Source: a virus. From it: 29,647 nucleotides of DNA. Positions 1-29,647 of this stretch are shown in pieces. A program made the translations under genes and the position numbers. Position 1 is the stretch's first letter. Each line of letters starts with the position of its first letter. The notes under the pieces were generated by a model. That model was not told the origin of the DNA and ran no database searches. It was given only the letters and a program-made list of their open reading frames with translations. The DNA lies in the IMG/VR virus record IMGVR_UViG_3300034104_001211, positions 1 to 29,647 of that record; one strand, given 5' to 3'.

Positions 1-1
1 T

Positions 2-340
2 CGTGAAACATCTTCACTTACTGAAACTATTACTGCTAACGTACAAAACGGAACTATATTCTACCAACAAGAAGTTGTGGTAGTTTTAAACAAATTAGCT
101 GCAGCAACAAGAAACGAAATCTTGTTATTGGCTAAAAACAGATTAATGGCTATCGTTGAAGATATGAACGGAGCTTATTGGTTAATAGGTGCAAAAAATG
201 GTTTAGATATTACTTCTGGTAATTCTGCTACTGGTACTGCATCTGGCGACAGAAATGGCTACTCTTTAACATTCCAAGCAATGGAAGCTGATCCAATGTG
301 GTCTGTATCTGCTGCTACAATAGGAGCTATTACAAACTAA
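2..340 (+). CDS. Probable major tail tube protein, C-terminal part (5' end outside window)
   Basis: The reading frame is open from base 2 to a TAA at 338-340, giving the last 112 residues of a longer protein. A GTG at 77 is internal, not a start. The fragment is rich in beta-forming residues and contains LLAKNRLMAIVEDMNG, YWLIGAKNGLD and a late DRNGYSLTF segment. From memory this resembles the C-termini of tail tube proteins in Bacteroidota phages. It is followed directly by a strong terminator, as expected for an abundantly expressed virion gene. It does not look like the usual C-terminus of the capsid protein that begins at the right edge, so I treat it as a different gene. Capsid C-terminus is the alternative. 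The family call rests on pattern recall only. Confidence 0.5.
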   Translation, partial: RETSSLTETITANVQNGTIFYQQEVVVVLNKLAAATRNEILLLAKNRLMAIVEDMNGAYWLIGAKNGLDITSGNSATGTASGDRNGYSLTFQAMEADPMWSVSAATIGAITN

Positions 341-10335: not shown

Positions 10336-10875
10336 ATGAACAAATTATCAAAAATTCAGTTTGAACTGAAAGCCCCAAAAAACCAATTTAATAATTTTGG
10401 TAATTACAAGTACAGAAACTGCGAGGATATTCTTGAAGCAGTTAAGCCATTATTAGCTAAGCATGAATGTACTTTAACTTTGTCCGATGAAATAAAAGAA
10501 ATTGGTGGTATTATTTATGTAGAAGCTGAAGCACTATTAATTGATTTAGAAACTTCATCTTCATATAAAGTAACTGCATGTGCCGGTATTGATCCTAATA
10601 AAAGAGGAATGGATATTGCACAAAGTTTCGGAGCATCATCTTCTTACGCTCGTAAATATGCCTTAAATGGTTTATTCCTTATTGATGACACTAAAGATGC
10701 AGATGCTACTAATACTCATGGTAAAGATGAGCCAGTAGGTATTGATGCTGAATTAGTTAATAAACTTTCTAAATGTAAGGATATTACAGAATTGCAAATG
10801 CTATACTCTACAAAAGAAGATTGGAGTAATGCAGAAAAAACTTTATTTACTAATCGCAAAAAATCTTTAAAATAA
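10336..10875 (+). CDS. erf: ERF-family single-strand annealing protein
   Basis: This 179-residue recombinase of the ERF superfamily binds ssDNA and anneals complementary strands in phage recombination and concatemer formation. Its N-terminal half carries FGNYKYRNCEDILEAVKPLL. Residues about 96-122 carry the ERF hallmark SFGASSSYARKYALNGLF, followed by LIDDTKDAD. The C-terminal 50 residues are a variable helical tail. It is the first gene after the 10266 promoter and overlaps the exonuclease gene by one base, the usual annealase/exonuclease pairing. Confidence 0.9.
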   Translation: MNKLSKIQFELKAPKNQFNNFGNYKYRNCEDILEAVKPLLAKHECTLTLSDEIKEIGGIIYVEAEALLIDLETSSSYKVTACAGIDPNKRGMDIAQSFGASSSYARKYALNGLFLIDDTKDADATNTHGKDEPVGIDAELVNKLSKCKDITELQMLYSTKEDWSNAEKTLFTNRKKSLK

Positions 10876-11513
10876 TGTTTGAACAAGACAATTGGATGAA
10901 CAGTAGGCTTGGGAAGTTTACTGCTTCCGAAATAGGAAACTTACTTACTGAAAGTAAAAAGAAAGATGAGGTATTTGGTGCAACTGCTAAAACCTACATT
11001 CATAGAAAAATACACGAGATATTAAGTGGCGAAGTAAAATCTTTAGGCTCACTACCGAGCTTGGAATGGGGCAAATCTTTAGAGAACGAAGCTATATTAG
11101 TTTATGAAGCTCAAACCGGTTATAAAGTAGAAAACTTGGGTGGTGCTAATCCTAAATTCTTTGAATTTGGAGAAAGAGCCGGAGGAAGTCCAGATGGATT
11201 GATTGAAAGCGATAAAGGTCAAGGGGTATTAGAGGTTAAATGTCCATATACCGGAGAAACTATGATTGACTACCTATTATTTAATACCGGAGCTGATTTA
11301 CTTGCTTATAATAAGAACTACTATGCTCAAGTACAGTTTAACATGGTATGCACTAACACGAATTGGGCGAATTGGGTGGCTTACGATCCGAGAATAAATA
11401 TGCTTAAGATAGTGCATATTGATAGAGATAATGATTTCTGCGAGAAGCTAATTGAAAAGGTAGAACTTGCTACAATCTATGTAAATAACATTTTAAATGT
11501 AATCAATGGGTAA
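10875..11513 (+). CDS. YqaJ-like / lambda-type exonuclease
   Basis: This 212-residue PD-(D/E)xK nuclease degrades dsDNA ends to produce the 3' single strands used by the ERF protein. Key residues visible are Glu70 in EWGKSLENEA, Asp107 in GGSPDGLIE, and Glu120-x-Lys122 in VLEVKCPYTG. The later YYAQVQFNM motif is characteristic of the YqaJ family. Length matches the family. The start overlaps the ERF stop by one base (TAATG) and the end overlaps the next gene by 8 nt, so all three are probably co-translated. Confidence 0.88.
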   Translation: MFEQDNWMNSRLGKFTASEIGNLLTESKKKDEVFGATAKTYIHRKIHEILSGEVKSLGSLPSLEWGKSLENEAILVYEAQTGYKVENLGGANPKFFEFGERAGGSPDGLIESDKGQGVLEVKCPYTGETMIDYLLFNTGADLLAYNKNYYAQVQFNMVCTNTNWANWVAYDPRINMLKIVHIDRDNDFCEKLIEKVELATIYVNNILNVING

Positions 11514-11862
11514 CTATAAAATAACTCCTCCGGTCGGCACTTTGCACGTTTACGTTGATGGTAGATTAGTCAAAAGCAAAGTACATAATACAAGATACAA
11601 TCGCGAATGCTATGCAACTGGCATGATTGTTAAATATACAGATAGCATTATTGATTTTGTTTTTAACGATGGCATAAGAGAAATACATATGTTTACTTAT
11701 GATCCTAAAGCAGCCATAATAAAACGAGTACACGAAATACCAAGCTATTTTAAAGATGGCATTGAATATTTTGATGACGCTAAATTCTGCCAATGGTATA
11801 ATCTTGGAGATGCAATTCCTAATAAATTAATTTTACAACCAGCTTCACTTTCACTAAAATAA
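11506..11862 (+). CDS. Hypothetical protein (118 aa)
   Basis: It overlaps the exonuclease gene by 8 nt. The protein is beta-rich at the start (VGTLHVYVDGRLVKSK, DSIIDFVFNDGIREIHMF) and ends with a more hydrophobic segment. It has no membrane helix, signal or recognised motif. Its coupling to the recombination pair suggests a role in DNA metabolism, which is only context. Function unknown. Confidence 0.65.
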   Translation: MGNYKITPPVGTLHVYVDGRLVKSKVHNTRYNRECYATGMIVKYTDSIIDFVFNDGIREIHMFTYDPKAAIIKRVHEIPSYFKDGIEYFDDAKFCQWYNLGDAIPNKLILQPASLSLK

Positions 11863-11868
11863 ATAAAT

Positions 11869-11994
11869 ATGACACAAGAAATTAAAAAATGGATTACATC
11901 TTTATTATTAAAATGGGCATTTAATATTTGCCCAGAAGGGAAATTTAAAACTAAATTTGCTTTGTTTATTCAAAATGATATTATGAACCTTTAA
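11869..11994 (+). CDS. Small hypothetical protein (41 aa)
   Basis: ATG 11869 to TAA 11992-11994 encodes 41 residues (MTQEIKKWITSLLLKWAFNI at the start). The first half could form an amphipathic, membrane-surface helix. The second half is basic (KFKTKF). It fits exactly between its neighbours and fills an otherwise empty stretch. The A-rich context before the ATG is like that of other genes here. Weakly supported as a real gene. Confidence 0.45.
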   Translation: MTQEIKKWITSLLLKWAFNICPEGKFKTKFALFIQNDIMNL

Positions 11995-12007
11995 AAACAA
12001 ATGAACT

Positions 12008-12313
12008 ATGACACACTATGAAATCTCCGTAGCTAAAAAAGTAGCTAAATTTATCAAGTCAAATAAAAAGATTACTAACAATGATTTGAGAGCCTTAATG
12101 ATGCAAGAGCACTCTATTCACTTGAGCCAAATCCAAATGCGTAAAATTATAAACTATCTTCGTACAGAGGGGATAGTTAAAAACTTGGCAGCAGATTGGG
12201 AAGGATATTGGATAGAGAAAGACCAGCTTAAAGTAATGAAGTATATTAAATCTTTAGAATTGAGAGCAAAGTCAATAATGCAAGTAGCAACTAAAATGAG
12301 AAAAGCACTGTGA
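12008..12313 (+). CDS. Winged-helix-like protein
   Basis: This 101-residue basic protein starts in the GAACTATG context. Residues about 1-75 have the helix-helix-helix-wing pattern of a winged helix (KVAKFIKSNKKITNNDLRAL, IQMRKIINYLRTEGIV, then WEGYWIE). A C-terminal helix follows (SLELRAKSIMQVATKMRKAL). This suggests DNA binding, either as a regulator or in replication. The stop overlaps the GTG of the following small gene. No specific family recognised. Confidence 0.65.
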   Translation: MTHYEISVAKKVAKFIKSNKKITNNDLRALMMQEHSIHLSQIQMRKIINYLRTEGIVKNLAADWEGYWIEKDQLKVMKYIKSLELRAKSIMQVATKMRKAL

Positions 12314-12489
12314 AATATCAACTCTTAAAGGATATAAAAAGCAATAGAATGGTAGATAAAAAGGTTTTTAAGGTATATGGTGCTAAAAATGAGATAGTAG
12401 AATTAATAGCTGAACATGGAGAAGTTTATATCGTTCAAGGTAAAAAAGAAAGATTTTCTGTAAAAAAAGAATTTTTAAAGGAAATTTAG
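12310..12489 (+). CDS. Small hypothetical protein (59 aa, GTG start)
   Basis: The GTG at 12310 overlaps the preceding TGA as GTGA. A second possible start is ATG 12349 (46 residues). The protein is Lys-rich with a beta-type core (KVFKVYGAKNEIVELIAEHG, VYIVQGKKERFSV). It may be a small nucleic-acid-binding or toxin-like fold, but I recognise nothing specific. It ends 2 nt before the candidate -7 element of the structured leader. Confidence 0.55.
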   Translation: MKYQLLKDIKSNRMVDKKVFKVYGAKNEIVELIAEHGEVYIVQGKKERFSVKKEFLKEI

Positions 12490-12490
12490 T

Positions 12491-12498
12491 TATATTTG
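12491..12498 (+). promoter_or_regulatory. Candidate -7 element for the structured leader
   Basis: TATATTTG matches TAnnTTTG and lies just after a stop codon, at the start of the largest non-coding gap in the window. No TTTG is found 17-23 nt upstream, so the promoter is incomplete by the Bacteroidota consensus. It may need an activator, or the leader may be transcribed from 10266. Confidence 0.4.
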
Positions 12499-12514
12499 CT
12501 TGTTCATAGTTGAT

Positions 12515-12659
12515 TTACCGGTAGTGTAAAAGCTGCCGGTAATTTCTAAAGAACTAATAATTATATAAAAGGGAATATTTAAAAGTAAGGAGTTAAATAT
12601 TTTCTATTAGGTTTTATAAACCAGCCCTTGTATTCCTTACTACAAGGGTTTTTTATTTT
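12515..12659 (+). ncRNA. Structured untranslated leader with complementary hairpin loops
   Basis: Three hairpins fill the 170-nt gap before the replication gene. Hairpin 1: TTACCGGTAG (12515-12524) pairs with CTGCCGGTAA (12533-12542), one G-T, 8-nt loop. Hairpin 2: 12571-12582 pairs with 12593-12604 (9 Watson-Crick pairs, then two G-T and one G-C) with loop AAGTAAGGAG (12583-12592). Hairpin 3 is the terminator at 12625-12648 with loop TTCCTTAC (12633-12640). Loop 2 bases 12585-12591 are perfectly complementary to loop 3 bases 12634-12640, plus one G-T at 12592/12633, so the whole terminator loop can kiss loop 2. This looks like a regulated attenuator or a stand-alone small RNA of about 150 nt. 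Confidence 0.65.
12625..12654 (+). terminator. Intrinsic terminator abutting the replication gene start
   Basis: CCCTTGTA (12625-12632) and TACAAGGG (12641-12648) form a perfect 8-bp stem with an 8-nt loop, followed by six T's (12649-12654). The next ATG is at 12660, only 11 nt after the stem, so the hairpin can control both read-through and ribosome access. Confidence 0.85.
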
Positions 12660-13472
12660 ATGAAAAAAGATGCATTTTACTTCCCACATTTTGCTAACGC
12701 AAGACACGATAGGAAGATTAAACGAGTAACAAAAGAACTTGGAATAGAGGGTTATGGTATCTATTTTATGCTTCTTGAGGTATTAAGAGAGCAACAAGAT
12801 TTTAGATATCCTATTTCGGATATTGACCTACTTGCTGATGAATTTGGAACTTCACTTGCTAAAGTTGAGGTAGTACTTAAAAAGTATGATTTATTTCAAT
12901 TAGATGAGTGCAATAACTTCTTTTCTATTAAGCAAGTATTTTATTTACAACCTTATTTAGAGAAGTCAAATAATGCACGATTAGCTGCTCAAAAGAGATG
13001 GCAAGGAGTTAAAGATGCAAATGCAGATGCAAATGCATTGCAAGAGCATTGCCTTGGTAATGCAAGTAAAGTAAAGGAAAGTAAACTAAAGGAAACTAAA
13101 GAAAAGAAAAGTAAAATAGAATTTGCAGATAAATCTGCTAACTATGATTTAATGGTAGAAGTTTATTTTAATTTCTATGAAAGTTTATTTAACTTTAAAC
13201 CAACATTCCAGGCAATAGATGGCAAGATGATAAAAGAGATTGAGGCTAAAATTATAAATATCTGCAATCAAAAATCGCTTGTTATTACTGAAAAATTAGT
13301 GGTTGGCAGCTTTACAAAAGTTTTAGATTATGCTTCAAAAGACAAATGGTTAAAAGAAAACTTTTTACTTAAAAATATAAATTCACAATTCAACAAAATT
13401 ATCAACTATGGAACAAAACAAGAAGGACAAAGAATTGAGCTTGACGAAGAAACCGCAAAGTATTTCGGTTAA
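12660..13472 (+). CDS. Replisome organiser / DnaD-like replication initiation protein
   Basis: This 270-residue protein has residues 1-105 matching the Lin1244/Lin1753-type (DUF4373-like) winged helix of phage replication proteins: FYFPHFANARHDRKIKRV, LGIEGYGIYFMLLEVLREQ and the YFLQP-like end. A repetitive linker (about 118-152, DANADANA then KVKESKLKETKEKKSK) leads to a C-terminal helical domain (about 158-250). Such proteins bind the origin and recruit the helicase loader. The start lies directly behind a terminator hairpin, so expression is probably attenuated. The linker-coding DNA has origin-like repeats. Confidence 0.75.
   Translation: MKKDAFYFPHFANARHDRKIKRVTKELGIEGYGIYFMLLEVLREQQDFRYPISDIDLLADEFGTSLAKVEVVLKKYDLFQLDECNNFFSIKQVFYLQPYLEKSNNARLAAQKRWQGVKDANADANALQEHCLGNASKVKESKLKETKEKKSKIEFADKSANYDLMVEVYFNFYESLFNFKPTFQAIDGKMIKEIEAKIINICNQKSLVITEKLVVGSFTKVLDYASKDKWLKENFLLKNINSQFNKIINYGTKQEGQRIELDEETAKYFG
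13014..13138 (+). other. Candidate replication origin inside the initiator gene
   Basis: Two tandem 12-bp repeats GATGCAAATGCA (13014-13025 and 13026-13037) are followed by more TGCA/GCATTGC-type words to about 13065. Next comes a strongly purine-rich, AT-rich tract at about 13064-13120 built from AAAGGAAA/CTAAAGGAAACTAAAG units. A perfect inverted repeat GCAGAT-AA-ATCTGC closes it (13125-13138). Iterons, an asymmetric AT-rich tract and a palindrome within the initiator gene is the layout of the lambda origin in gene O. The alternative is simple linker-coding DNA. Confidence 0.45.
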
Positions 13473-13989
13473 TCATGCACCAGCTGACTTTAGTCATACA
13501 AAAACTTTAGTCCAATTATCAAAAGAATTAGGAGTAGAAAAGATTTATTCCGGAGTAGCTGCTCAATTAAGCAACTTTTTAAACTACATAGGTTGCGAAT
13601 GGAATAATGCTCAAAAGCAAGATGTTGTTGAGCTTATTTGCAATAACTATGCTAATTTAACTGCAGAGCAATGGAAGCTATTTTATGTTAAGGCTAAAAC
13701 CGGTACTTTTGGAGATATATACGGAAAATTAAGTCCAATTGCATTTATGAAATGGGTTAATACTTATGCAGCCGAGTGCGATTATGCAAACGAGCAGTTT
13801 AAGATACAAAAGGATAGACAAATAAATGAAGTAAGCGAAGAGATACCGGTTATAGACGGTTATTTTGATAAGCTAATAGAATGTATAAACCAAGTAGCAA
13901 ACAAGCCAGAAACAGACAATAAAACGCAAAGAATAGCAGAAAAACGAGCTGAATGGGAAAAAACTTTTTCTAATTACTTTAAAAAATAA
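13408..13989 (+). CDS. Replication-associated protein (possible helicase-loader type)
   Basis: This 193-residue protein overlaps the initiator gene by 65 nt and starts in the CAACTATG context. The N-terminal 30 residues are a disordered Lys/Ser linker. The helical core contains NLTAEQWKLFYVKAKTGTFG, then IYGKLSPIAFMKWVNTY, which I recall from a conserved protein (DUF6633-like) in Bacteroidota mobile elements. A charged C-terminal helix ends it. Placement directly after the initiator suggests helicase loading or another replication function. That is inference. Confidence 0.6.
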   Translation: MEQNKKDKELSLTKKPQSISVNHAPADFSHTKTLVQLSKELGVEKIYSGVAAQLSNFLNYIGCEWNNAQKQDVVELICNNYANLTAEQWKLFYVKAKTGTFGDIYGKLSPIAFMKWVNTYAAECDYANEQFKIQKDRQINEVSEEIPVIDGYFDKLIECINQVANKPETDNKTQRIAEKRAEWEKTFSNYFKK

Positions 13990-13998
13990 AAATCAACT

Positions 13999-14397
13999 AT
14001 GAAACAAACAAATTTATTCGGTGCTGAATTTGCACCTAAAGAAGAAGAACAAAAGTACTCTTCTAAAATTGAAGCTCCTATTTATGAGCCAAAGAATTTA
14101 AAACCACATATTTTTGAACTTGTAGATAAGTCAAAAACTCAAAGGTTAATTAGAGAAATAGATGCTTCTAATTTACCTATTGATGAAAAGTTATTTTTAA
14201 TTGATGCGGCAAAAAGGCATCTTGTATTTAATTATGAGAAAATAGCTGACTATTATGCACATTCAAGCAAAGAAATGCAACATTTCATGGAGCGATCTGC
14301 ACTCGTAATAATAGATTTTGATAAAGCGATACAGTATGGCTATGTTAAACTATGTGATGAAATTAAAAAACAATTTCTTGAGGAATATGGAGAATAA
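13999..14397 (+). CDS. Conserved phage protein coupled to the glycosyltransferase
   Basis: This 132-residue protein has a disordered N-terminus (to about residue 35) and a helical core: TQRLIREIDASNLPIDEKLF, AAKRHLVFNYEKIADYYAHS and SALVIIDFDKAIQYGYVKL. I recall the YEKIADYYAHSSKEMQ pattern in phage proteins encoded near DNA-modification genes, though its function is not known to me. The gene overlaps the glycosyltransferase start by 11 nt, implying coupled translation and perhaps a shared process. Confidence 0.6.
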   Translation: MKQTNLFGAEFAPKEEEQKYSSKIEAPIYEPKNLKPHIFELVDKSKTQRLIREIDASNLPIDEKLFLIDAAKRHLVFNYEKIADYYAHSSKEMQHFMERSALVIIDFDKAIQYGYVKLCDEIKKQFLEEYGE

Positions 14398-15238
14398 TTT
14401 TGCAGTGTTTATACTAACACATGGGAGGCCAGATAATGTAAAAACATTTAATACATTAAAAAAATGTGGTTATACTGGTAAGATTTATTTTATTGTAGAC
14501 AATGAAGATAAATCTATTGAAAAATATATATCTAATTTTGGAGAAGATAATGTTAAGGTATTTGATAAAAAAGAAATGGCTGATAGTATTGATGAGGGTA
14601 ATAACTTTGATAATAGAAAGGTTATTATTCATGCAAGAAATGCTTGTTTTAAAATAGCTAAAGAATTAGATATTAAATATTTTATACAATTTGATGATGA
14701 CTATACTTCTTTTGATTATAGATTATATATTAATGATGCAGCTAAAGTAGTCCCTATTAAGAATTTTGATAATTATATTGTAAAAATGATAGAGTATTAT
14801 AAAAGTTCTAATTTTAAATCAATAGCTTTAGCTCAAGGCGGTGATTTTATAGGTGGTTTAGACAATGGAAAAGGATTATATAGATTTAGTAAAAGAAAAT
14901 GTATGAATTCTTTTTTATGCTCTACAGATAGAGAATTTCAATTTGTAGGATCTATAAATGAAGATGTTAATACTTATACTTCATACGGTAGTAAAGGTTA
15001 TTTATTCTTAACTATTCCTTTTGTTTCACTTACTCAAACTGCAACTCAAAGTAATAAAGGTGGAATGACTGATGAATATGCCTTAACTGGAACTTATGTA
15101 AAATCTTTTCATTCTGTATTAATGCACCCGTCTGGAGTTAAAGTTTCTATGATGAATAGCAACCACCCAAGACTGCATCATCAAATTAAATGGATAAATA
15201 CAGTTCCTTGCATTTTAGATGATAAATATAAAAAATAA
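14387..15238 (+). CDS. TET-associated glycosyltransferase-like protein (TAGT/GREB1-type)
   Basis: This 283-residue protein starts at ATG 14387. An upstream in-frame ATG at 14318 would only add sequence overlapping the previous gene. It has a GT-A fold pattern: FAVFILTHGRPDNV (5-18), IYFIVDNED (33-41), NFDNRKVIIHARNACF (73-88) and a metal/nucleotide-sugar DDD motif at 103-105 (FIQFDDDYTSF). Late motifs include GSINEDVNTYT and NHPRLHHQIKW. This matches the TET-associated glycosyltransferases that add sugars to hydroxylated bases in phage DNA. No TET/JBP dioxygenase or hydroxymethylpyrimidine synthase is visible, so the acceptor is unknown. By eye the gene is more AT-rich than its neighbours, suggesting recent acquisition. 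Confidence 0.75.
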   Translation: MENNFAVFILTHGRPDNVKTFNTLKKCGYTGKIYFIVDNEDKSIEKYISNFGEDNVKVFDKKEMADSIDEGNNFDNRKVIIHARNACFKIAKELDIKYFIQFDDDYTSFDYRLYINDAAKVVPIKNFDNYIVKMIEYYKSSNFKSIALAQGGDFIGGLDNGKGLYRFSKRKCMNSFLCSTDREFQFVGSINEDVNTYTSYGSKGYLFLTIPFVSLTQTATQSNKGGMTDEYALTGTYVKSFHSVLMHPSGVKVSMMNSNHPRLHHQIKWINTVPCILDDKYKK

Positions 15239-15576
15239 TGAGTGAGCATAAACTTCAAGTAAATTGTATAAATTGGTTTAAACTTCAATATCCGAGAGAG
15301 CTTATATATAGTATCCCGAACGGAGGTTTTCGCCATTTTAGTACTGCTAAACGATTAAAAGCAGAGGGAGTAGTAAGTGGAATTCCAGATTTATTTATTC
15401 CTACTCCAATGGGCGAATATCATGGACTTTATATTGAAATGAAATACGGATATAATAAACCAAGCGAAGCTCAAAAGAAAATAATGGCTTATCTAACTAA
15501 TAAAGGCTACTTGTGTGCGGTATGCTGGAGTTTAGATGAATTTATGCAAACTATTAACAATTATTATAAATTGTGA
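15238..15576 (+). CDS. VRR-NUC domain nuclease
   Basis: This 112-residue protein is a minimal VRR-NUC (PD-(D/E)xK superfamily) nuclease: SIPNGGFRH, GVVSGIPDLFIP with Asp51, and GLYIEMKYG with Glu67 and Lys69, then PSEAQKKIMAYL. It is the size of stand-alone phage members, which cut branched or flapped DNA and may resolve replication intermediates. The ATG shares a base with the glycosyltransferase TAA. Confidence 0.88.
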   Translation: MSEHKLQVNCINWFKLQYPRELIYSIPNGGFRHFSTAKRLKAEGVVSGIPDLFIPTPMGEYHGLYIEMKYGYNKPSEAQKKIMAYLTNKGYLCAVCWSLDEFMQTINNYYKL

Positions 15577-15629
15577 ATAAAAAACCTAATAAAATAATTT
15601 AAATTAACAAAAATTCTTAATTTTACACT

Positions 15630-15974
15630 ATGGCAGCGAAAACAACAGATGCTTTTTACTTTGCAAAGGCTTTACTTTATGCTAAATTGAGTAGAGATTA
15701 CTTTGATTTTATAATTACAGAAACCGGAGCAACTTACGGAGCTAAACAAACTTTAAAAGGTTATACCGGTAGATTGGATTGGATTAATAGAGATTTGCTT
15801 ATGAAAATAACTCATGAAGATTTTAAAAAAATGTATGAGATTGATTTAGCAAATGCCGGAGCTATTGATAGTATGGCTAACAACTATGTAATTCTAAACG
15901 AAGAGAACAGAGCAAAACTTGAGGAATATTCCGAACAACTAATAAAAGAACAAAAAAATGTCAGCACTAATTAA
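15630..15974 (+). CDS. Hypothetical protein (114 aa)
   Basis: It follows a 53-nt AT-rich gap (15577-15629) in which I see no clear promoter (TAATTTTA at 15618 only partly fits the -7 motif). The start context is ACACTATG. The protein is helical and aromatic (DAFYFAKALLYAKLSRDYFD, then YTGRLDWINRDLLMKI). No motif recognised. Its end overlaps the SSB-like gene by 17 nt, suggesting a role in DNA replication or repair, by context only. Confidence 0.65.
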   Translation: MAAKTTDAFYFAKALLYAKLSRDYFDFIITETGATYGAKQTLKGYTGRLDWINRDLLMKITHEDFKKMYEIDLANAGAIDSMANNYVILNEENRAKLEEYSEQLIKEQKNVSTN

Positions 15975-16191
15975 TTTCAGCCTAAAACAAGAAGATGGTA
16001 CTTATAAGTACTATACTGCATCAATTAATGATGAATTAGATAAATATGGCAATAATGTTGCTATAAGTTTACAACAAACAAAAGAGCAAAGAGAAGCTAA
16101 AGAAAAAAGGGTTTATGTGGGCAATGGCAAGGTAGCTTGGACAAATGGCAAAATAGAGGTTGCAACTAAAAAAGAAGATTTACCTTTCTAA
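15958..16191 (+). CDS. Small SSB-like protein
   Basis: This 77-residue protein looks like a reduced OB fold: beta strands at 4-25 (LINFSLKQEDGTYKYYTASI), NNVAISLQQ, and RVYVGNGKVAW near 50-60. It ends in EDLPF, the acidic-hydrophobic tip by which bacterial SSBs (DDIPF) recruit replication and repair enzymes. It is far shorter than cellular SSB (about 110-180 residues). A ssDNA-binding role fits the neighbouring nuclease and recombination genes. The call rests on the tail and strand pattern. Confidence 0.6.
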   Translation: MSALINFSLKQEDGTYKYYTASINDELDKYGNNVAISLQQTKEQREAKEKRVYVGNGKVAWTNGKIEVATKKEDLPF

Positions 16192-16499
16192 TGAATAAGC
16201 AAGAACAACTACAATTTGCAAGAGATATATTCAAGGATATATTAGACCTTTTAGAAAGCAAAGGCGATGACTATGCAAATGAAGATAGATTAAGCAATTT
16301 TAAGGAAACTGGAATGTTATGTGGTACTACTGCATTCCAGGTTTGTCTTAATCAAATAGGAATTAAAATATCAAGAATTGTCAATTTAATTGGCAAAGAG
16401 GCAAGAAACGAGAGTATGAGAGATAGCTTACAAGACCTTATAACATATTCTTTAATTTTGTCAATGATCCACGAAGATGAGGCAGCAGATAATAACTGA
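16191..16499 (+). CDS. DUF1599 / MazG-like protein (nucleotide-modification associated)
   Basis: This 102-residue all-helical protein contains LLESKGDDYANEDRLSNFKE, then IKISRIVNLIGKEA and SLQDLITYSLILSMI. That order of KGxDY, NFK, KxxR and DLxxY matches the DUF1599/Nmad1 and MazG-like NTP-pyrophosphohydrolase families as I recall them. Such proteins occur in phages that alter their DNA bases or nucleotide pools. The ATG shares a base with the SSB-like stop. A few metal-binding acidic residues are present, but activity cannot be judged. Confidence 0.55.
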   Translation: MNKQEQLQFARDIFKDILDLLESKGDDYANEDRLSNFKETGMLCGTTAFQVCLNQIGIKISRIVNLIGKEARNESMRDSLQDLITYSLILSMIHEDEAADNN

Positions 16500-17115
16500 C
16501 CTTTATAATTCAAGAGAATTAAAAGACGTAATCTCTAAAATGCAGCCGGAGCATTTACGAGATGAATTGCTATCCGAAGTAATGTTAGTAGTATGTAATC
16601 TTCCAGAAGAGAGATTATTCCAAATGAATAATGATGGGTATCTCAAATTCTACGTTATTCGCACCATTTTAAACATGATTAAGTCCAATGACAGTACATT
16701 CCATAATAAATTTAGAAAAGTTTATGAGGAAGTACCTAATATAGTAGAAACTCCAAGTGATTTTGAGATAATGGAGGCAAAGTTTGAAAAGGTGGAGGAA
16801 TTTCACGATAAACTACCATTCTACGAGAACAACCTACTTAAATACTATTTAAAATATAATTGCAAGGCTAAAAAGTTAAGCAACGATACCGGCATACCGG
16901 TACGAAGTATTTATGAAACTATCTCTAAAATCAAAAGAAAAGCTAAAATGAGCGACTTATTTAACGAGAAAATCAAATTCACTATTGAGTGTGAAATAGA
17001 TGTTCCTAAAGAATGGGATATTGACCAAATACTTGATGAGCTGGATAAGGTATTTAAAAAGGTGCAAGAAAATAAAGAAAATAAATTTACCCCTATATGC
17101 TACAAAATATCATAG
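16477..17115 (+). CDS. Phage-encoded sigma factor-like protein
   Basis: This 212-residue protein has a sigma-70-like layout. A region-2-like helical part (about 1-90) contains HLRDELLSEVMLVVCNLPEE, then YLKFYVIRTILNMIKSND and FHNKFRKVYEE. A region-4-like helix-turn-helix lies near 128-155 (AKKLSNDTGIPVRSIYETIS, then KIKRKAK). A charged extension follows. Similar short sigma-like proteins occur in many Bacteroidota phages and are thought to direct host RNA polymerase to phage promoters. It is the last DNA-metabolism gene before the packaging and virion genes, fitting a middle/late switch. It overlaps the upstream gene by 23 nt. Confidence 0.7.
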   Translation: MRQQIITDLYNSRELKDVISKMQPEHLRDELLSEVMLVVCNLPEERLFQMNNDGYLKFYVIRTILNMIKSNDSTFHNKFRKVYEEVPNIVETPSDFEIMEAKFEKVEEFHDKLPFYENNLLKYYLKYNCKAKKLSNDTGIPVRSIYETISKIKRKAKMSDLFNEKIKFTIECEIDVPKEWDIDQILDELDKVFKKVQENKENKFTPICYKIS

Positions 17116-17330
17116 CAACTTTGATTGTAATGGTAGTATGGTTTGAAATCTACCAAGTCCCAAGCTGGAATAAGTATTTAAAAAAGAAGCCATTTGGTTG
17201 CGAATATTGTCTGCCGGTGTATGCTTATTTAATAATTTCACTTTTGCCTATTTATATTAAAGAGATTATTATAGGTGCATTCCTTTCAGTAATCTTATTT
17301 CAATTAATCATAAAATTTATAAGAAAATGA
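17097..17330 (+). CDS. Small membrane protein with CxxC motif
   Basis: This 77-residue protein has a hydrophobic N-terminal helix (about 2-18, IIATLIVMVVWFEIY) and one or two C-terminal helices (about 41-74). A short loop carries KKPFGCEYCLPVYAYL, with a CxxC pair that could bind metal or be redox active. I recall similar KPFxCxxCLPF loops in phage membrane proteins of unknown function. It overlaps the sigma-like gene by 19 nt and the next gene by 4 nt. Confidence 0.65.
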   Translation: MLQNIIATLIVMVVWFEIYQVPSWNKYLKKKPFGCEYCLPVYAYLIISLLPIYIKEIIIGAFLSVILFQLIIKFIRK

Positions 17331-17638
17331 CACAAGAAGAATTAGATTTTTTATTTGTTACCCAATTAGATAACTCAATCAGTATTCAGTATGAAGTATT
17401 GAGAAACCTAACTCAACCAGTATTTGAGCAGTATAAAGCAATCCATAATAAGTATATCTATGAAAGCAATGATAGAAACAACTGTGGAAGCTGCGTTTTT
17501 GAACTTGTAAACCGAGTATATAAATATGCAAATAAATATAAAGAAAGCCTTAAAGTCGCTCAACAACCGAGTGAAGCACATAATCAAGACAGTGCGAATG
17601 GTAAGAAATCTAAAAAGAAAATAGAGAGTGAAAAATAG
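17327..17638 (+). CDS. Hypothetical protein (103 aa)
   Basis: It overlaps the upstream membrane-protein gene by 4 nt (ATGA). Residues 1-70 are helical (EELDFLFVTQLDNSISIQYE, NNCGSCVFELVNRVYKYANK) with a CxxC. Residues 75-103 are a disordered Ser/Lys tail (NGKKSKKKIESEK). No family recognised. The basic tail may contact DNA. Confidence 0.65.
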   Translation: MTQEELDFLFVTQLDNSISIQYEVLRNLTQPVFEQYKAIHNKYIYESNDRNNCGSCVFELVNRVYKYANKYKESLKVAQQPSEAHNQDSANGKKSKKKIESEK

Positions 17639-17786
17639 TAGATTTGCAAAATATTTAAAAAAGTATAAAAACTCAATTTGTCCAATAAAATATTATATGG
17701 ATAAAAAAGGAGATTTTTATATAGAATTTAAAGAAAAAGATATTAAGCAATTATTTGATAAATATAAGATTTATGCCAATATATAA
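17628..17786 (+). CDS. Small basic hypothetical protein (52 aa, GTG start)
   Basis: GTG 17628 lies within the end of the previous gene, and the TAA at 17784-17786 overlaps the start of the HAD gene. The protein (KYLKKYKNSICPIKYYMDKK, then FYIEFKEKDIKQLFDKY) has alternating beta and helical character and a high Lys content. It fills an otherwise empty 116-nt stretch with overlaps on both sides, which favours a real gene. Function unknown. Confidence 0.5.
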   Translation: MKNSRFAKYLKKYKNSICPIKYYMDKKGDFYIEFKEKDIKQLFDKYKIYANI

Positions 17787-18201
17787 ATGTTCAAATGGTA
17801 AATACCGAATAGGTAACGGATCTTGTATTTATGACACGAAAGGTAAAGCGGAAAAGGTATATCGTGCAATCTTGGCTCAAGGAGAATTTGCAACTAAAAT
17901 AGTAAGTTTTGATTTTGATGATACTTTAAGTACTGCTAAAGGTCAAGAGAAAGCAAAGCAATTATTAGCAGAGAATTACCGAGTGTTAATTATTACTGCA
18001 AGACAAAGTAAGGATAGTAAAGAAGTTTATGATGTGGCTGATAAGTTAGGTATAAGAAGAAGTGATATTTACTTTACAAACGGAAAAAACAAGTGGGAAA
18101 CAGTTAAAAGATTAGGTGTTGCAATCCATTACGATAACAACCAGGAGCAAGTAGATTTAATAAACAAAATGACTAAAACAGAGGGTAAACTATTCAAATG
18201 A
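17773..18201 (+). CDS. HAD-family phosphatase with N-terminal Cys motif
   Basis: This 142-residue protein starts at ATG 17773. An in-frame TTG at 17755 is less likely. Residues 44-142 are a compact HAD phosphatase: nucleophile motif DFDDT (D47, D49, T51), motif II Thr75 in LIITARQ, a Lys in NGKNKWETVK and a late acidic motif in AIHYDNN. This cap-less form resembles polynucleotide 3'-phosphatases and 5'-nucleotidases. Residues 1-38 are a separate segment (MPIYKCSNGKYRIGNGSCIY, then KAEKVYRAIL) that I recall as a short N-terminal module in other phage proteins. It overlaps the ParB-like gene by 4 nt. Confidence 0.75.
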   Translation: MPIYKCSNGKYRIGNGSCIYDTKGKAEKVYRAILAQGEFATKIVSFDFDDTLSTAKGQEKAKQLLAENYRVLIITARQSKDSKEVYDVADKLGIRRSDIYFTNGKNKWETVKRLGVAIHYDNNQEQVDLINKMTKTEGKLFK

Positions 18202-18632
18202 TAAAATTATCAAGTTTAAAGCTCAATCCAGAAAATCCAAGAGTAGTAAGAAACGAGAATTTTAAGAAATTGGTTGAAAGCATAAGGACATTCCCTAAAA
18301 TGCTTGAGTTAAGACCTATAATTGTAGATGAAAATAACATAATAGTAGGTGGTAATCAAAGATATAGAGCTTTACTTGACTTAAATTACAAAGAAATAGA
18401 GGACGCTTGGGTTAAGAAAGCTACTGATTTTAATGCTAAAGAGCTAAAGGAGTTCTTAATTAGAGATAATATCAATGCTGGAGAGTGGGATTATGAGCAG
18501 TTAGCGAATGAATGGGACGCTATAGAGCTTCAAAATTGGGGACTTGATGTGCCTATTTGGAATGAAGATAAGGAAGAAGATAATACAAAAGGAACTGGAA
18601 CTATCTGCCCATCTTGTGGAGTGGAATTTTAA
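18198..18632 (+). CDS. ParB/Srx-fold nuclease-like protein
   Basis: This 144-residue protein contains the ParB N-terminal domain pattern: LSSLKLNPENPRV (4-16), NFKKLVESIRTFP (21-33), RPIIVDENNIIVGGNQRYRA (39-58) and later FLIRDNINAGEWDYEQLANE. GGNQRYRAL is the phosphate/nucleotide-binding loop (GGHRR in ParB). There is no HTH domain for plasmid partition. Stand-alone ParB-fold proteins in phages often accompany DNA modification or terminase modules. The end has a CPSC pair. The next genes are HNH and terminase. Confidence 0.78.
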   Translation: MIKLSSLKLNPENPRVVRNENFKKLVESIRTFPKMLELRPIIVDENNIIVGGNQRYRALLDLNYKEIEDAWVKKATDFNAKELKEFLIRDNINAGEWDYEQLANEWDAIELQNWGLDVPIWNEDKEEDNTKGTGTICPSCGVEF

Positions 18633-18633
18633 T

Positions 18634-18891
18634 ATGCAAAAACATACAAAACTATACCTTGATTACTTCGGATATGATACCGGATCATTCATACCTTGTG
18701 AAGTATGTGGCACAAAGGCTACTGATATTCACCATATTGATTGTAGGGGTATGGGTGGCACGAAAAAGGAAGATACCATAGAGAATTTACAAGCATTATG
18801 TAGAATTTGCCACATTCGCTACGGAGATAAAAAGAATTATAAGGACTTCTTAAAAGAAACACATAAAAAAGTAATAGAATATCATAAATAA
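18634..18891 (+). CDS. HNH endonuclease
   Basis: I chose ATG 18634, 85 residues; longer in-frame starts overlap the ParB-like gene by up to 89 nt. The HNH zinc-finger core is complete: CEVC (22-25), DIHHID (31-36) with catalytic His33/His34, Asn51 in IENLQALC, and CRICH (56-60). Small HNH enzymes next to terminase genes, such as HK97 gp74, stimulate cos cleavage or packaging. The position 850 nt before the large terminase fits that role. Confidence 0.87.
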   Translation: MQKHTKLYLDYFGYDTGSFIPCEVCGTKATDIHHIDCRGMGGTKKEDTIENLQALCRICHIRYGDKKNYKDFLKETHKKVIEYHK

Positions 18892-18893
18892 CT

Positions 18894-19082
18894 ATGGAAC
18901 AAACACCAGTAGAATTCTTACATTCATTCATGGAGCAAAATAGATACTTCATAGGTAATGATTTACTAATAGCATTCATAAAGGCTCAACAAATACATGA
19001 GCATCAAGTTAAAACTGCATACATTGAGAGTAATAGCTACCAATCTGCAGAGCAATACTTTAACGAAAAGTTTAATAGATAA
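18894..19082 (+). CDS. Small hypothetical protein (62 aa)
   Basis: It starts 2 nt after the HNH stop in an ATAACTATG context. The protein is helical (VEFLHSFMEQNRYFIGNDLL, then AFIKAQQIHEHQVKTAYIE) and ends SYQSAEQYFNEKFNR. I recall similar FMEQNxYFIGNDL proteins as short conserved genes between replication and packaging modules. No function known. Confidence 0.6.
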   Translation: MEQTPVEFLHSFMEQNRYFIGNDLLIAFIKAQQIHEHQVKTAYIESNSYQSAEQYFNEKFNR

Positions 19083-19102
19083 TTTAGAAACAAATAAGAG
19101 AA

Positions 19103-19492
19103 ATGGCTAACGAACAGAATTTAAGACCAGCTAAAAAAGGAGAGGTAAGAAATCCTAATGGCAGACCGAGAAAGTTTGTATCGGCTTTAAAAGAGCAAGG
19201 GTACAAAATGAGCGAGGTAAACGATGCTATCCAGGTGCTTATGTCTATGACTCTTGAAGAGTTAGCAGATACCTTTAAAAATCCAAATGCAACGATATTA
19301 GAAAAGACAGTAGCAAATGCTTTAAAGAAATCACTTGAGAAAGGCAGCTTATATTCTTTAGATACTTTAATGAGTAGGGTATATGGCAAACCTAAAGAAA
19401 CTGTAAGCCAAGAGGTAACTATTAATACTGTCAATGTTAAGGTAGTAGAAAGTGCAGTACCTTTAGCAAGTAGCGAAAATGAAATTAAATAA
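19103..19492 (+). CDS. Terminase small subunit-like protein
   Basis: This 129-residue protein has an N-terminal AKKGEVRNPNGRPRKFVSAL motif, which is the DUF5681-type DNA-binding start found before large terminases. A helical part follows (VNDAIQVLMSMTLEELADTF, ILEKTVANALKKSLEKGSLY) with DTLMSRVYGKPKE. The motif's GRPRK core resembles an AT-hook. Small terminases recognise the packaging site and feed DNA to the large subunit, whose gene begins 250 nt downstream after two tiny genes. Confidence 0.7.
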   Translation: MANEQNLRPAKKGEVRNPNGRPRKFVSALKEQGYKMSEVNDAIQVLMSMTLEELADTFKNPNATILEKTVANALKKSLEKGSLYSLDTLMSRVYGKPKETVSQEVTINTVNVKVVESAVPLASSENEIK

Positions 19493-29230: not shown

Positions 29231-29647
29231 ATGGCGTTTAACGTAAGTGCTTTATCAAACTACACTATTGAAAATCAAGATTTATTAGTGTCTGCTGCTG
29301 TATTAGGAGCAAAAACTGCTACTTTGATTAAAAATCAAGGTAACGTAATGGTAGGTGTAAAATCTGCTGAAAAAATTAACATCATGGATACTGATGCAGT
29401 ATTCCAAGCTGGTGGAACTTGTGGCTTCAATGCTTCTGGTACTACTACTTTCACTCAAAGAACTGTAACTATTGGTAAAATCAAAGTTAACGAAGCTCTT
29501 TGTATCAAATCTTTAGAAACTAAATATCTTCAAAAAGCTTTACCTGCAGGATCAATGTATACTGAAATGGTTTATGCTGAAGATTATTCTAACTTAAAAG
29601 CTGCTAAAATTGCTGCTCAATTAGAAACTGCTATCTGGCAAGGAGAT
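29231..29647 (+). CDS. Major capsid protein, N-terminal part (3' end outside window)
   Basis: The first 139 codons are present and the frame is still open at the right edge. The product starts MAFNVSALSNYTIENQDLLV and contains KSAEKINIMDTDAVFQAGG, TTTFTQRTVTIGKIKVNE and LKAAKIAAQLETAIWQGD. This matches the N-terminus of HK97-fold capsid proteins of Bacteroidota phages as I recall them. The usual size is over 300 residues, so more than half is missing. It follows the protease and scaffold genes in canonical order. Confidence 0.85.
   Translation, partial: MAFNVSALSNYTIENQDLLVSAAVLGAKTATLIKNQGNVMVGVKSAEKINIMDTDAVFQAGGTCGFNASGTTTFTQRTVTIGKIKVNEALCIKSLETKYLQKALPAGSMYTEMVYAEDYSNLKAAKIAAQLETAIWQGD

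What the first reader, a model, noticed from the sequence alone, without database searches (positions are those of the whole stretch)
13999..15238. DNA-glycosyltransferase homologue without a visible base hydroxylase
The 14387 gene has the GT-A motifs of TET-associated glycosyltransferases, known to be linked to glycosylation of hydroxylated pyrimidines in phage DNA. No TET/JBP dioxygenase, dCMP/dUMP hydroxymethylase or other acceptor-making enzyme appears in the window. A translationally coupled conserved protein (13999), a DUF1599/MazG-like protein (16191) and a ParB-fold protein (18198) lie nearby and could be parts of an unrecognised hypermodification or anti-restriction pathway.
Basis: partly seen in the sequence, partly recalled or inferred. 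Interest (0 to 1): 0.66.

Follow-up and report, generated by a model that had tools for sequence, protein, structure and literature searches.

The report
Glycosyltransferase–partner cassette in phage modification slot
This phage carries a two-gene unit, a sugar-transferring enzyme plus an uncharacterised small partner protein, found in phages of bacteria and archaea and in about a quarter of E. coli genomes, which sits where its closest relatives keep DNA-modifying enzymes and therefore probably attaches sugars to phage DNA without any recognisable enzyme to prepare the DNA first.

Summary
ORF 14387-15238 is a TAGT-family GT-A glycosyltransferase (PF20691, E=1e-30) with an intact active site. 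It overlaps ORF 13999-14397 by 11 nt. No TET/JBP, thymidylate-synthase/hydroxymethylase or other acceptor-making enzyme is recognisable. The window lacks only about 0.77 kb of a circular ~30.4-kb genome (capsid gene), so this is nearly a whole-genome statement.

The 13999 protein is a previously unnamed ~105-aa domain bound to TAGT: 277/277 occurrences have a TAGT nearby, 270 within 150 bp, and genes usually overlap. It is standalone or fused behind a ParB N-terminal domain. The pair occurs in Bacteroidota, Clostridia, Lactobacillus, Nocardia, Vibrio, an archaeal virus and the E. coli Rac prophage (ynaK). The other two genes (16191, 18198) are backbone genes, kept in relatives without TAGT.

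Best functional evidence: 16 near-identical relatives carry, in the same slot, a C5 DNA methyltransferase (8), an N4/N6 methyltransferase (1), a dCMP-hydroxymethylase-like set (2) or nothing (5). The pair is most likely a DNA-glycosylation, anti-restriction cassette working with its partner protein, not with a phage hydroxylase. The acceptor and sugar are unknown. DNA as target is inferred, not shown.

The parts
13999..14397 (+). Partner protein: standalone ~105-aa domain of unknown function (consensus Y-T-x-K-I-x-x-P-x-Y-E-P ... A-A-x-R-H-x-V-F-x-Y-x-x-I-A-x-Y-Y-A-H-A ... M-E-x-S-A-L-V-I-I-D), obligate neighbour of TAGT; C-terminal domain of ParB-like proteins in other phages
   Evidence: BLASTP 42-52% to the C-terminal parts of ParB-like proteins of Salmonella phage SPF_0923, Lactobacillus phage jlb1 and archaeal virus HHTV-2; tblastn in phages: all 28 records hit are also TAGT records; 277/277 loci have TAGT nearby; AF2 small helical core; no Pfam family at cut-off, NCBIfam, PADLOC or PDB family
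14387..15238 (+). TAGT glycosyltransferase (GT-A fold, PF20691), intact catalytic motifs D103-D105, D193, H264/H265
   Evidence: Pfam 1e-30, invariant columns, AF2 pLDDT 91 and GT-A matches in PDB
13990..15237 (+). Exchange slot between the 13408 gene and the VRR-NUC gene: holds partner+TAGT here; C5-MTase, N4/N6-MTase, dCMP-hydroxymethylase-like set or nothing in 16 near-identical relatives; GC 27.1% against 31-33% of flanks
13408..13989 (+). Upstream flank gene (93-97% aa identity in relatives), anchor of the slot
15238..15576 (+). Downstream flank gene, VRR-NUC nuclease (PF08774, 1.2e-8), anchor of the slot

Best explanation
13999 and 14387 form one mobile cassette: a two-protein glycosyltransferase that modifies the phage's own DNA so that host restriction enzymes do not cut it. 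TAGT transfers a sugar from a nucleotide-sugar taken from the host pool. The partner protein is its dedicated subunit, most likely binding TAGT and presenting the DNA substrate; in many other phages it also carries a ParB N-terminal (DNA-binding-type) adapter. No phage-made hydroxylated base is used, so the acceptor is either a canonical base, modified directly, or a group generated by the partner itself. Shown: enzyme family and intact active site, obligate and coupled gene pair, absence of recognised acceptor-making enzymes, the pair occupying a slot otherwise filled by DNA-modifying enzymes. Inferred: DNA as target, anti-restriction role, physical complex, direct modification.
For: (1) Slot replacement: in 16 contigs with flanks 90-95% identical in DNA, the slot holds a C5-cytosine MTase (8), N4/N6 MTase (1), a thymidylate-synthase-family enzyme with the Asp typical of dCMP hydroxymethylases plus MazG and dCMP deaminase (2), or nothing (5); the two cassette genes are the only window genes of the surveyed 9-kb backbone absent from all these relatives. 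(2) Obligate pairing: 270/277 within 150 bp, the rest within 2.5 kb; overlap in 258/271. (3) Partner distances track TAGT distances (r=0.53, permutation maximum 0.20), ParB distances do not (r=0.08), although ParB and partner share a gene. (4) ParB-N fused to the partner in 107 loci; ParB-N is likewise fused to DNA MTases in relatives (L307) and in the PADLOC MTase_II model. (5) Same pair in viruses of archaea, Gram-positive and Gram-negative bacteria, arguing against a cell-envelope acceptor. (6) Sugar-nucleotide genes next to TAGT in some prophages: UDP-galactopyranose mutase, NAD-dependent sugar epimerase/dehydratase family. (7) A PF20691 member, T6 beta-glucosyl-HMC-alpha-GT, acts on DNA (PMC13216743; Pfam match).
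Against: No biochemical or nucleoside data were found for any phage with this pair. T6 TAGT is very distant (profile of this subfamily scores it below zero bits), so its substrate cannot be carried over. The human relative GREB1 is reported to O-GlcNAcylate a protein (cited in PMC10908778). The partner shows no recognisable catalytic or DNA-binding fold. PF12851 had no positive control, so a divergent dioxygenase could be missed.
Confidence: 0.55

Rival explanations
1. Conventional hypermodification: TAGT glycosylates a hydroxylated pyrimidine, but the hydroxyl-making enzyme is host-encoded, supplied by a divergent phage dioxygenase not recognised by profiles, or is the partner protein acting as a new kind of hydroxylase.
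For: All characterised DNA glycosyltransferases known to me need a hydroxylated base; T6 TAGT sits next to dCMP hydroxymethylase; two close relatives of the window phage carry a dCMP-hydroxymethylase-like enzyme in the very same slot. Partner has near-invariant R73, H74, E98, D106.
Against: No PF00303 in 48 of 49 cassette records, no PF12851 hit, including complete ~30-65 kb phages of several host phyla; partner H74 and the second His are lost in the Porphyromonas homologue, and its predicted fold is a small helical domain with no oxygenase match.
Confidence: 0.2
2. The pair glycosylates a protein or RNA (for example a phage or host DNA-processing protein, or a restriction/defence protein) rather than DNA.
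For: GREB1, the family's animal relative, is reported as a protein O-GlcNAc transferase (PMC10908778 citing Shin 2021); closest solved folds include hydroxylysine galactosyltransferase and peptide glycosyltransferases; a dedicated partner could be acceptor or adaptor.
Against: Slot alternatives are all DNA-base or nucleotide-modifying enzymes; ParB-N fusions.
Confidence: 0.17
3. The unit is not for modification of phage DNA but for superinfection exclusion or host-envelope change (serotype-conversion-like glycosyltransferase).
For: Prophage location in many genomes and neighbouring trkG in Rac-type prophages; sugar-nucleotide genes nearby in some loci.
Against: No lipid-carrier or membrane partner genes recognised beside it; one family across archaeal, Gram-positive and Gram-negative viruses with unrelated envelopes; Lactobacillus phage c5 and Vibrio T4-like phages carry it; replacement by DNA methyltransferases.
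Confidence: 0.05

Closest known systems
T6 beta-glucosyl-HMC-alpha-glucosyltransferase (TAGT of T-even phages)
   Same: Pfam PF20691 (3.7e-9), GT-A fold (PMC13216743), phage-encoded, directly downstream of and overlapping its functional partner gene
   Different: Its partner is dCMP hydroxymethylase, with alpha-GT elsewhere; no 13999-type domain in the T6 stretch searched; sequence so distant that the window subfamily profile does not detect it
TET/JBP-linked TAGT pathways (Iyer et al. 2013, from memory; paper not held)
   Same: Same Pfam family name and predicted chemistry
   Different: No TET/JBP found in any cassette record searched (without positive control); a different obligate neighbour
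Solitary phage TAGTs noted in the NAR 2026 T4 glucosyltransferase paper (PMC13216743)
   Same: That paper counts 288 of 753 phage genomes with TAGT but no alpha/beta-GT and calls them potential novel transferases
   Different: It does not mention ParB in its text; no partner domain, slot exchange or Rac prophage appears in the passages read
ParB N-terminal/DNA methyltransferase fusions of phages (PHROG 498, PADLOC MTase_II)
   Same: ParB-N adapter joined to a DNA-modification enzyme, near terminase genes
   Different: Here ParB-N is joined to the partner domain and the enzyme is a glycosyltransferase; the window version has no ParB fused
E. coli Rac prophage gene ynaK and the neighbouring 'GREB1-related protein'
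   Same: Same cassette: ParB-N + partner domain, with TAGT directly downstream
   Different: K-12 keeps only the first ~87 residues of ynaK and no TAGT; no description of its function was found

Membership tests
PF20691 TAGT glycosyltransferases | Full-length match above the curated cut-off | tested here: met
   107.7 bits against 27.5, positions 1-205/205
PF20691 TAGT glycosyltransferases | GT-A fold with DxD, acidic catalytic base and C-terminal His | tested here: met
   DDD 103-105, D193, H264/H265 conserved; AF2 pLDDT 91, GT-A matches
PF20691 TAGT glycosyltransferases | Transfers sugar to a DNA base | not testable with these tools
   needs biochemistry/LC-MS
TET/JBP-linked base hypermodification pathway | TET/JBP dioxygenase in the same genome | tested here: not met
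   no Pfam dioxygenase among window ORFs; no PF12851 in 49 cassette records (control genomes silent); ~0.77 kb missing is capsid region
T-even type cytosine glucosylation (T6 beta-glucosyl-HMC-alpha-GT) | dCMP hydroxymethylase and a first glucosyltransferase in the genome | tested here: not met
   PF00303 absent; no AGT/BGT family among Pfam hits of window ORFs
T-even type cytosine glucosylation (T6 beta-glucosyl-HMC-alpha-GT) | Close sequence kinship with T6 TAGT | tested here: not met
   subfamily profile A4 scores T6 TAGT at -1.6 bits
ParB-like partition protein (PHROG 620) | 13999 corresponds to the C-terminal domain of this family | tested here: met
   PHROG 620 positions 148-215, 42-52% identity to C-terminal parts
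ParB-like partition protein (PHROG 620) | ParB N-terminal domain in the same protein | tested here: not met
   13999 has only 132 aa without ParB-N; as in 168 of 275 loci
DUF1599 / nucleotide modification associated domain 1 (16191) | Score above curated cut-off | tested here: not met
   19 bits against 25; gene also present in relatives without TAGT

The most novel reading that the evidence does not exclude
The partner+TAGT pair glycosylates a canonical DNA base directly, with no prior hydroxylation: a new chemistry of DNA modification, widespread in tailed viruses of bacteria and archaea and resident in many E. coli as part of the Rac prophage.
Probability: 0.3. Interest if true: 0.9.

Novelty: new variant of a known kind. 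Interest (0 to 1): 0.7.

Why it matters
Hundreds of phages carry TAGT glycosyltransferases whose function is unknown (PMC13216743). This work ties one large subfamily to an obligate, unnamed partner domain, shows that it behaves as an exchangeable DNA-modification cassette, and finds it in laboratory-tractable hosts: the E. coli Rac prophage and Lactobacillus phages that differ by its presence. If DNA is the target, either direct base glycosylation or a new way of making a hydroxylated base must exist, and both can be tested with two cloned genes.

Tried and rejected
Four-gene pathway (13999, TAGT, 16191, 18198): rejected, because 16191 and 18198 persist in relatives without the cassette. A split ParB gene (18198 as the detached N-terminal half of the fused ParB): considered because 13999 and 18198 match the two halves of PHROG 620; rejected for this window because 18198 is 97-99% identical in relatives with no partner gene. 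Hydroxylase in the missing segment: rejected by synteny. Fold recognition of the partner: no meaningful Foldseek or VIA-align match, no convincing PDB sequence relative (coiled/armadillo matches are chance-level). Unbiased sampling of TAGT in 395 Bacteroidota and 398 genomes of a second phylum gave too few hits to estimate how many TAGTs lack the partner; one distant TAGT (L290) had an upstream ParB with another C-terminal domain. PF12851 scan over 49 records had no ringing control. Literature searches found no paper joining ParB and TAGT and no DNA-modification report for HHTV-2 in the one paper read for it. No plasmid carries the TAGT at E<1e-5. Two regions pulled only for their terminase flanks were not used. 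Ascertainment: most loci were found through the pair's own profiles, so 277/277 says that the domain does not occur without TAGT among domain-containing loci, not that every TAGT has the domain.

Full report
WHAT IS THERE. The window is an IMG/VR virus record of 29,647 bases. ORF 14387-15238 encodes a 283-aa TAGT glycosyltransferase (PF20691, 1e-30; PHROG 842, 3e-66). AlphaFold2 from 90 related sequences gives a confident GT-A model (pLDDT 91, pTM 0.90), whose best PDB matches are GT-A glycosyltransferases such as ColGalT1/LH3, TarP, TarS, SunS and AvpGT. The metal-binding DDD (103-105), the acidic residue D193 in NED, and H264/H265 are invariant or nearly so. It starts inside the end of ORF 13999-14397, overlapping by 11 nt.

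THE GENOME IS NEARLY COMPLETE. The ORF at 29231-29647 is the start of a gene that the contig cuts, and 2-340 is the end of another. In relatives L278-L281 both lie in this order in one stretch, 755-785 bp apart (54-74% aa identity). The window is thus a circularly permuted genome lacking about 0.77 kb of capsid-region sequence. That this gap holds no hydroxylase is an inference from synteny, but a strong one. Pfam scans of the predicted genes found no dioxygenase or hydroxymethylase and PF00303 is absent.

THE 13999 PROTEIN IS A DEDICATED TAGT PARTNER. No Pfam family at cut-off, NCBIfam, PADLOC or PDB family covers it. It matches the C-terminal ~100 residues of ParB-like proteins encoded directly upstream of TAGT in Salmonella/E. 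coli phages, Lactobacillus phages, Nocardia phage NTR1 and the archaeal virus HHTV-2 (42-52% identity). In Vibrio T4-like phages it stands alone before TAGT, as here. All 28 phage records with the domain are also TAGT records. A profile found it in 277 ORFs of fetched loci; 270 have TAGT within 150 bp downstream on the same strand and the other seven have it within 2.5 kb. The genes overlap in 258 of 271 cases, median 11 nt. In 107 of 275 loci an N-terminal ParB domain is fused to it; in the rest it is standalone. Pairwise distances of partner and TAGT correlate (r=0.53 over 123 non-redundant loci; permutation maximum 0.20). In the 69 ParB-fused loci ParB distances do not follow TAGT (r=0.08), although ParB lies in the same polypeptide as the partner. 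So the partner and TAGT are the unit, and ParB is an exchangeable adapter. Co-inheritance of adjacent genes alone would also give a correlation, so the contrast with ParB is the informative part. The predicted structure is a small helical core (residues 36-100, pLDDT above 90) with a conserved N-terminal peptide and a conserved C-terminal SALVIID segment of lower confidence. Conserved but poorly folded segments would fit binding to a partner such as TAGT; this is inference.

SLOT REPLACEMENT. Contigs with both flanking genes (13408-like upstream; VRR-NUC downstream, 84-97% aa identity; DNA identity about 90-95%) show what the same place holds in close relatives. Of 16: a C5-cytosine DNA methyltransferase in 8, an N4/N6 DNA methyltransferase in 1, a thymidylate-synthase-family protein with MazG, dCMP deaminase and a 107-aa protein in 2, and only 8 bp in 5 (Pfam). 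The thymidylate-synthase-like protein has LPFDIA in place of LPFNIA, the Asn-to-Asp change of dCMP hydroxymethylases; T6 hydroxymethylase shows the same Asp. Over the surveyed backbone 10336-19492 the two cassette genes are the only window genes missing from every relative, while most others are 85-100% identical. Cassette G+C is 27.1% against 31-33% next to it. PF20691 is absent from all 15 whole records of these relatives searched. All filled slots thus hold DNA-base or nucleotide-modifying enzymes. This is the best evidence that the cassette modifies DNA, probably against restriction. It is contextual, not biochemical.

16191 and 18198 are backbone genes: 16191 is present at 75-100% identity and 18198 at 97-99% in relatives without the cassette. 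In L306, L307, L309 and L312 the 18198 position holds a ParB of 55-56% identity; in L307, whose sequence was read, this ParB is fused to an N4/N6-type methyltransferase, so that position is a second modification-related exchange site.

SPREAD. Genome hits include Bacteroidota, Clostridia, Veillonella, Desulfovibrio, Spirochaetes, Kiritimatiellae and Enterobacteriaceae. In E. coli the pair belongs to Rac-type prophages: 1,592 of 5,426 complete genomes match part and 900 match at least 80% of a 1,751-bp query. The genes are annotated ynaK (ParB/Srx N-terminal) and 'GREB1-related protein' or hypothetical. K-12 MG1655 retains only the first ~87 residues of ynaK. In L. delbrueckii phages the cassette is complete in c5, present in PMBT4, fused by deletion in LL-Ku, shortened in Ld17 and reduced to remnants in Ld25A and Ld3: accessory, as expected of an anti-restriction gene.

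SUGAR AND ACCEPTOR. Next to TAGT in some prophages lie UDP-galactopyranose mutase (L236, L257), an NAD-dependent sugar epimerase/dehydratase-family gene (L242), another glycosyltransferase (L101) and, in about ten loci, a radical SAM enzyme; two or three TAGTs in tandem occur. The added sugar probably differs between phages. The acceptor remains unknown. TET_JBP was not found in 49 cassette records (no positive control) and thymidylate-synthase/hydroxymethylase in only one, a 196-kb Vibrio phage. By contrast T6 TAGT lies against dCMP hydroxymethylase and has no partner domain in the stretch searched.

COMPARISON WITH WHAT IS KNOWN. T6 TAGT adds a second glucose to glucosyl-hmC, and 288 of 753 phage genomes have TAGT without alpha- or beta-GT, function open (PMC13216743). 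The window TAGT is a member of PF20691 but not of the T6 type or of the TET-linked pathway. I found no publication describing the partner domain or the pairing. The original family paper (Iyer et al. 2013) is not in the library, so it may mention ParB neighbours.

VERDICT. Observation confirmed. Interpretation partly supported: a coupled two-gene cassette, not a four-gene pathway. Most likely function is DNA glycosylation against restriction (0.55), with direct modification of an unhydroxylated base as the most novel open reading (0.3).

Noticed in passing
window 18198-18632; L306, L307, L309, L312: The standalone ParB-N protein is replaced at the same backbone position in some close relatives by a ParB of 55-56% identity; in L307 it is fused to an N4/N6-type DNA methyltransferase, suggesting a second DNA-modification exchange site.
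   Followed up: partly
L300:3536-5008 and L304 (same slot as the window cassette): Thymidylate-synthase-family protein with LPFDIA (dCMP-hydroxymethylase-like Asp), MazG and dCMP deaminase, with no TAGT: possibly an unglycosylated hmC system in a small phage.
   Followed up: partly
E. coli Rac prophage: L379 (K-12), L380 (ATCC 8739), L250 (E69): ynaK and the neighbouring 'GREB1-related protein' are this cassette; about 29% of complete E. coli genomes carry all or part of it, and K-12 has only a ynaK remnant.
   Followed up: partly
L086, L248, L251, L259, L260, L261, L265, L267, L268, L157 (downstream of TAGT): Radical SAM enzymes follow one or two TAGTs, mostly in Clostridia prophages or gut phages; the L086 protein matches MoaA-type, tungsten-cofactor-maturase and viperin models only weakly. 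Role unknown.
   Followed up: partly
L236, L257, L242: UDP-galactopyranose mutase or an NAD-dependent sugar epimerase/dehydratase-family gene beside TAGT; L236 has three TAGTs in tandem, suggesting furanose or multi-sugar decoration.
   Followed up: no
L091 (Lactobacillus phage LL-Ku), L398, L399, L400: Deletions in the Cequinquevirus group fuse ParB-N to TAGT or remove the cassette, giving a natural with/without comparison for virion DNA analysis.
   Followed up: partly
L290 (Bacteroidota genome): A distant TAGT is preceded by a ParB-like gene with an unrelated C-terminal domain, hinting that ParB-TAGT coupling arose more than once.
   Followed up: partly
PHROG 842 annotation: The name 'beta-glucosyl-HMC-alpha-glucosyltransferase' is carried over to this subfamily although the T6 enzyme is not detectably similar to its profile.
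   Followed up: yes
window 1-340 and 29231-29647: The window is a circularly permuted, nearly complete genome cut inside the capsid region.
   Followed up: yes
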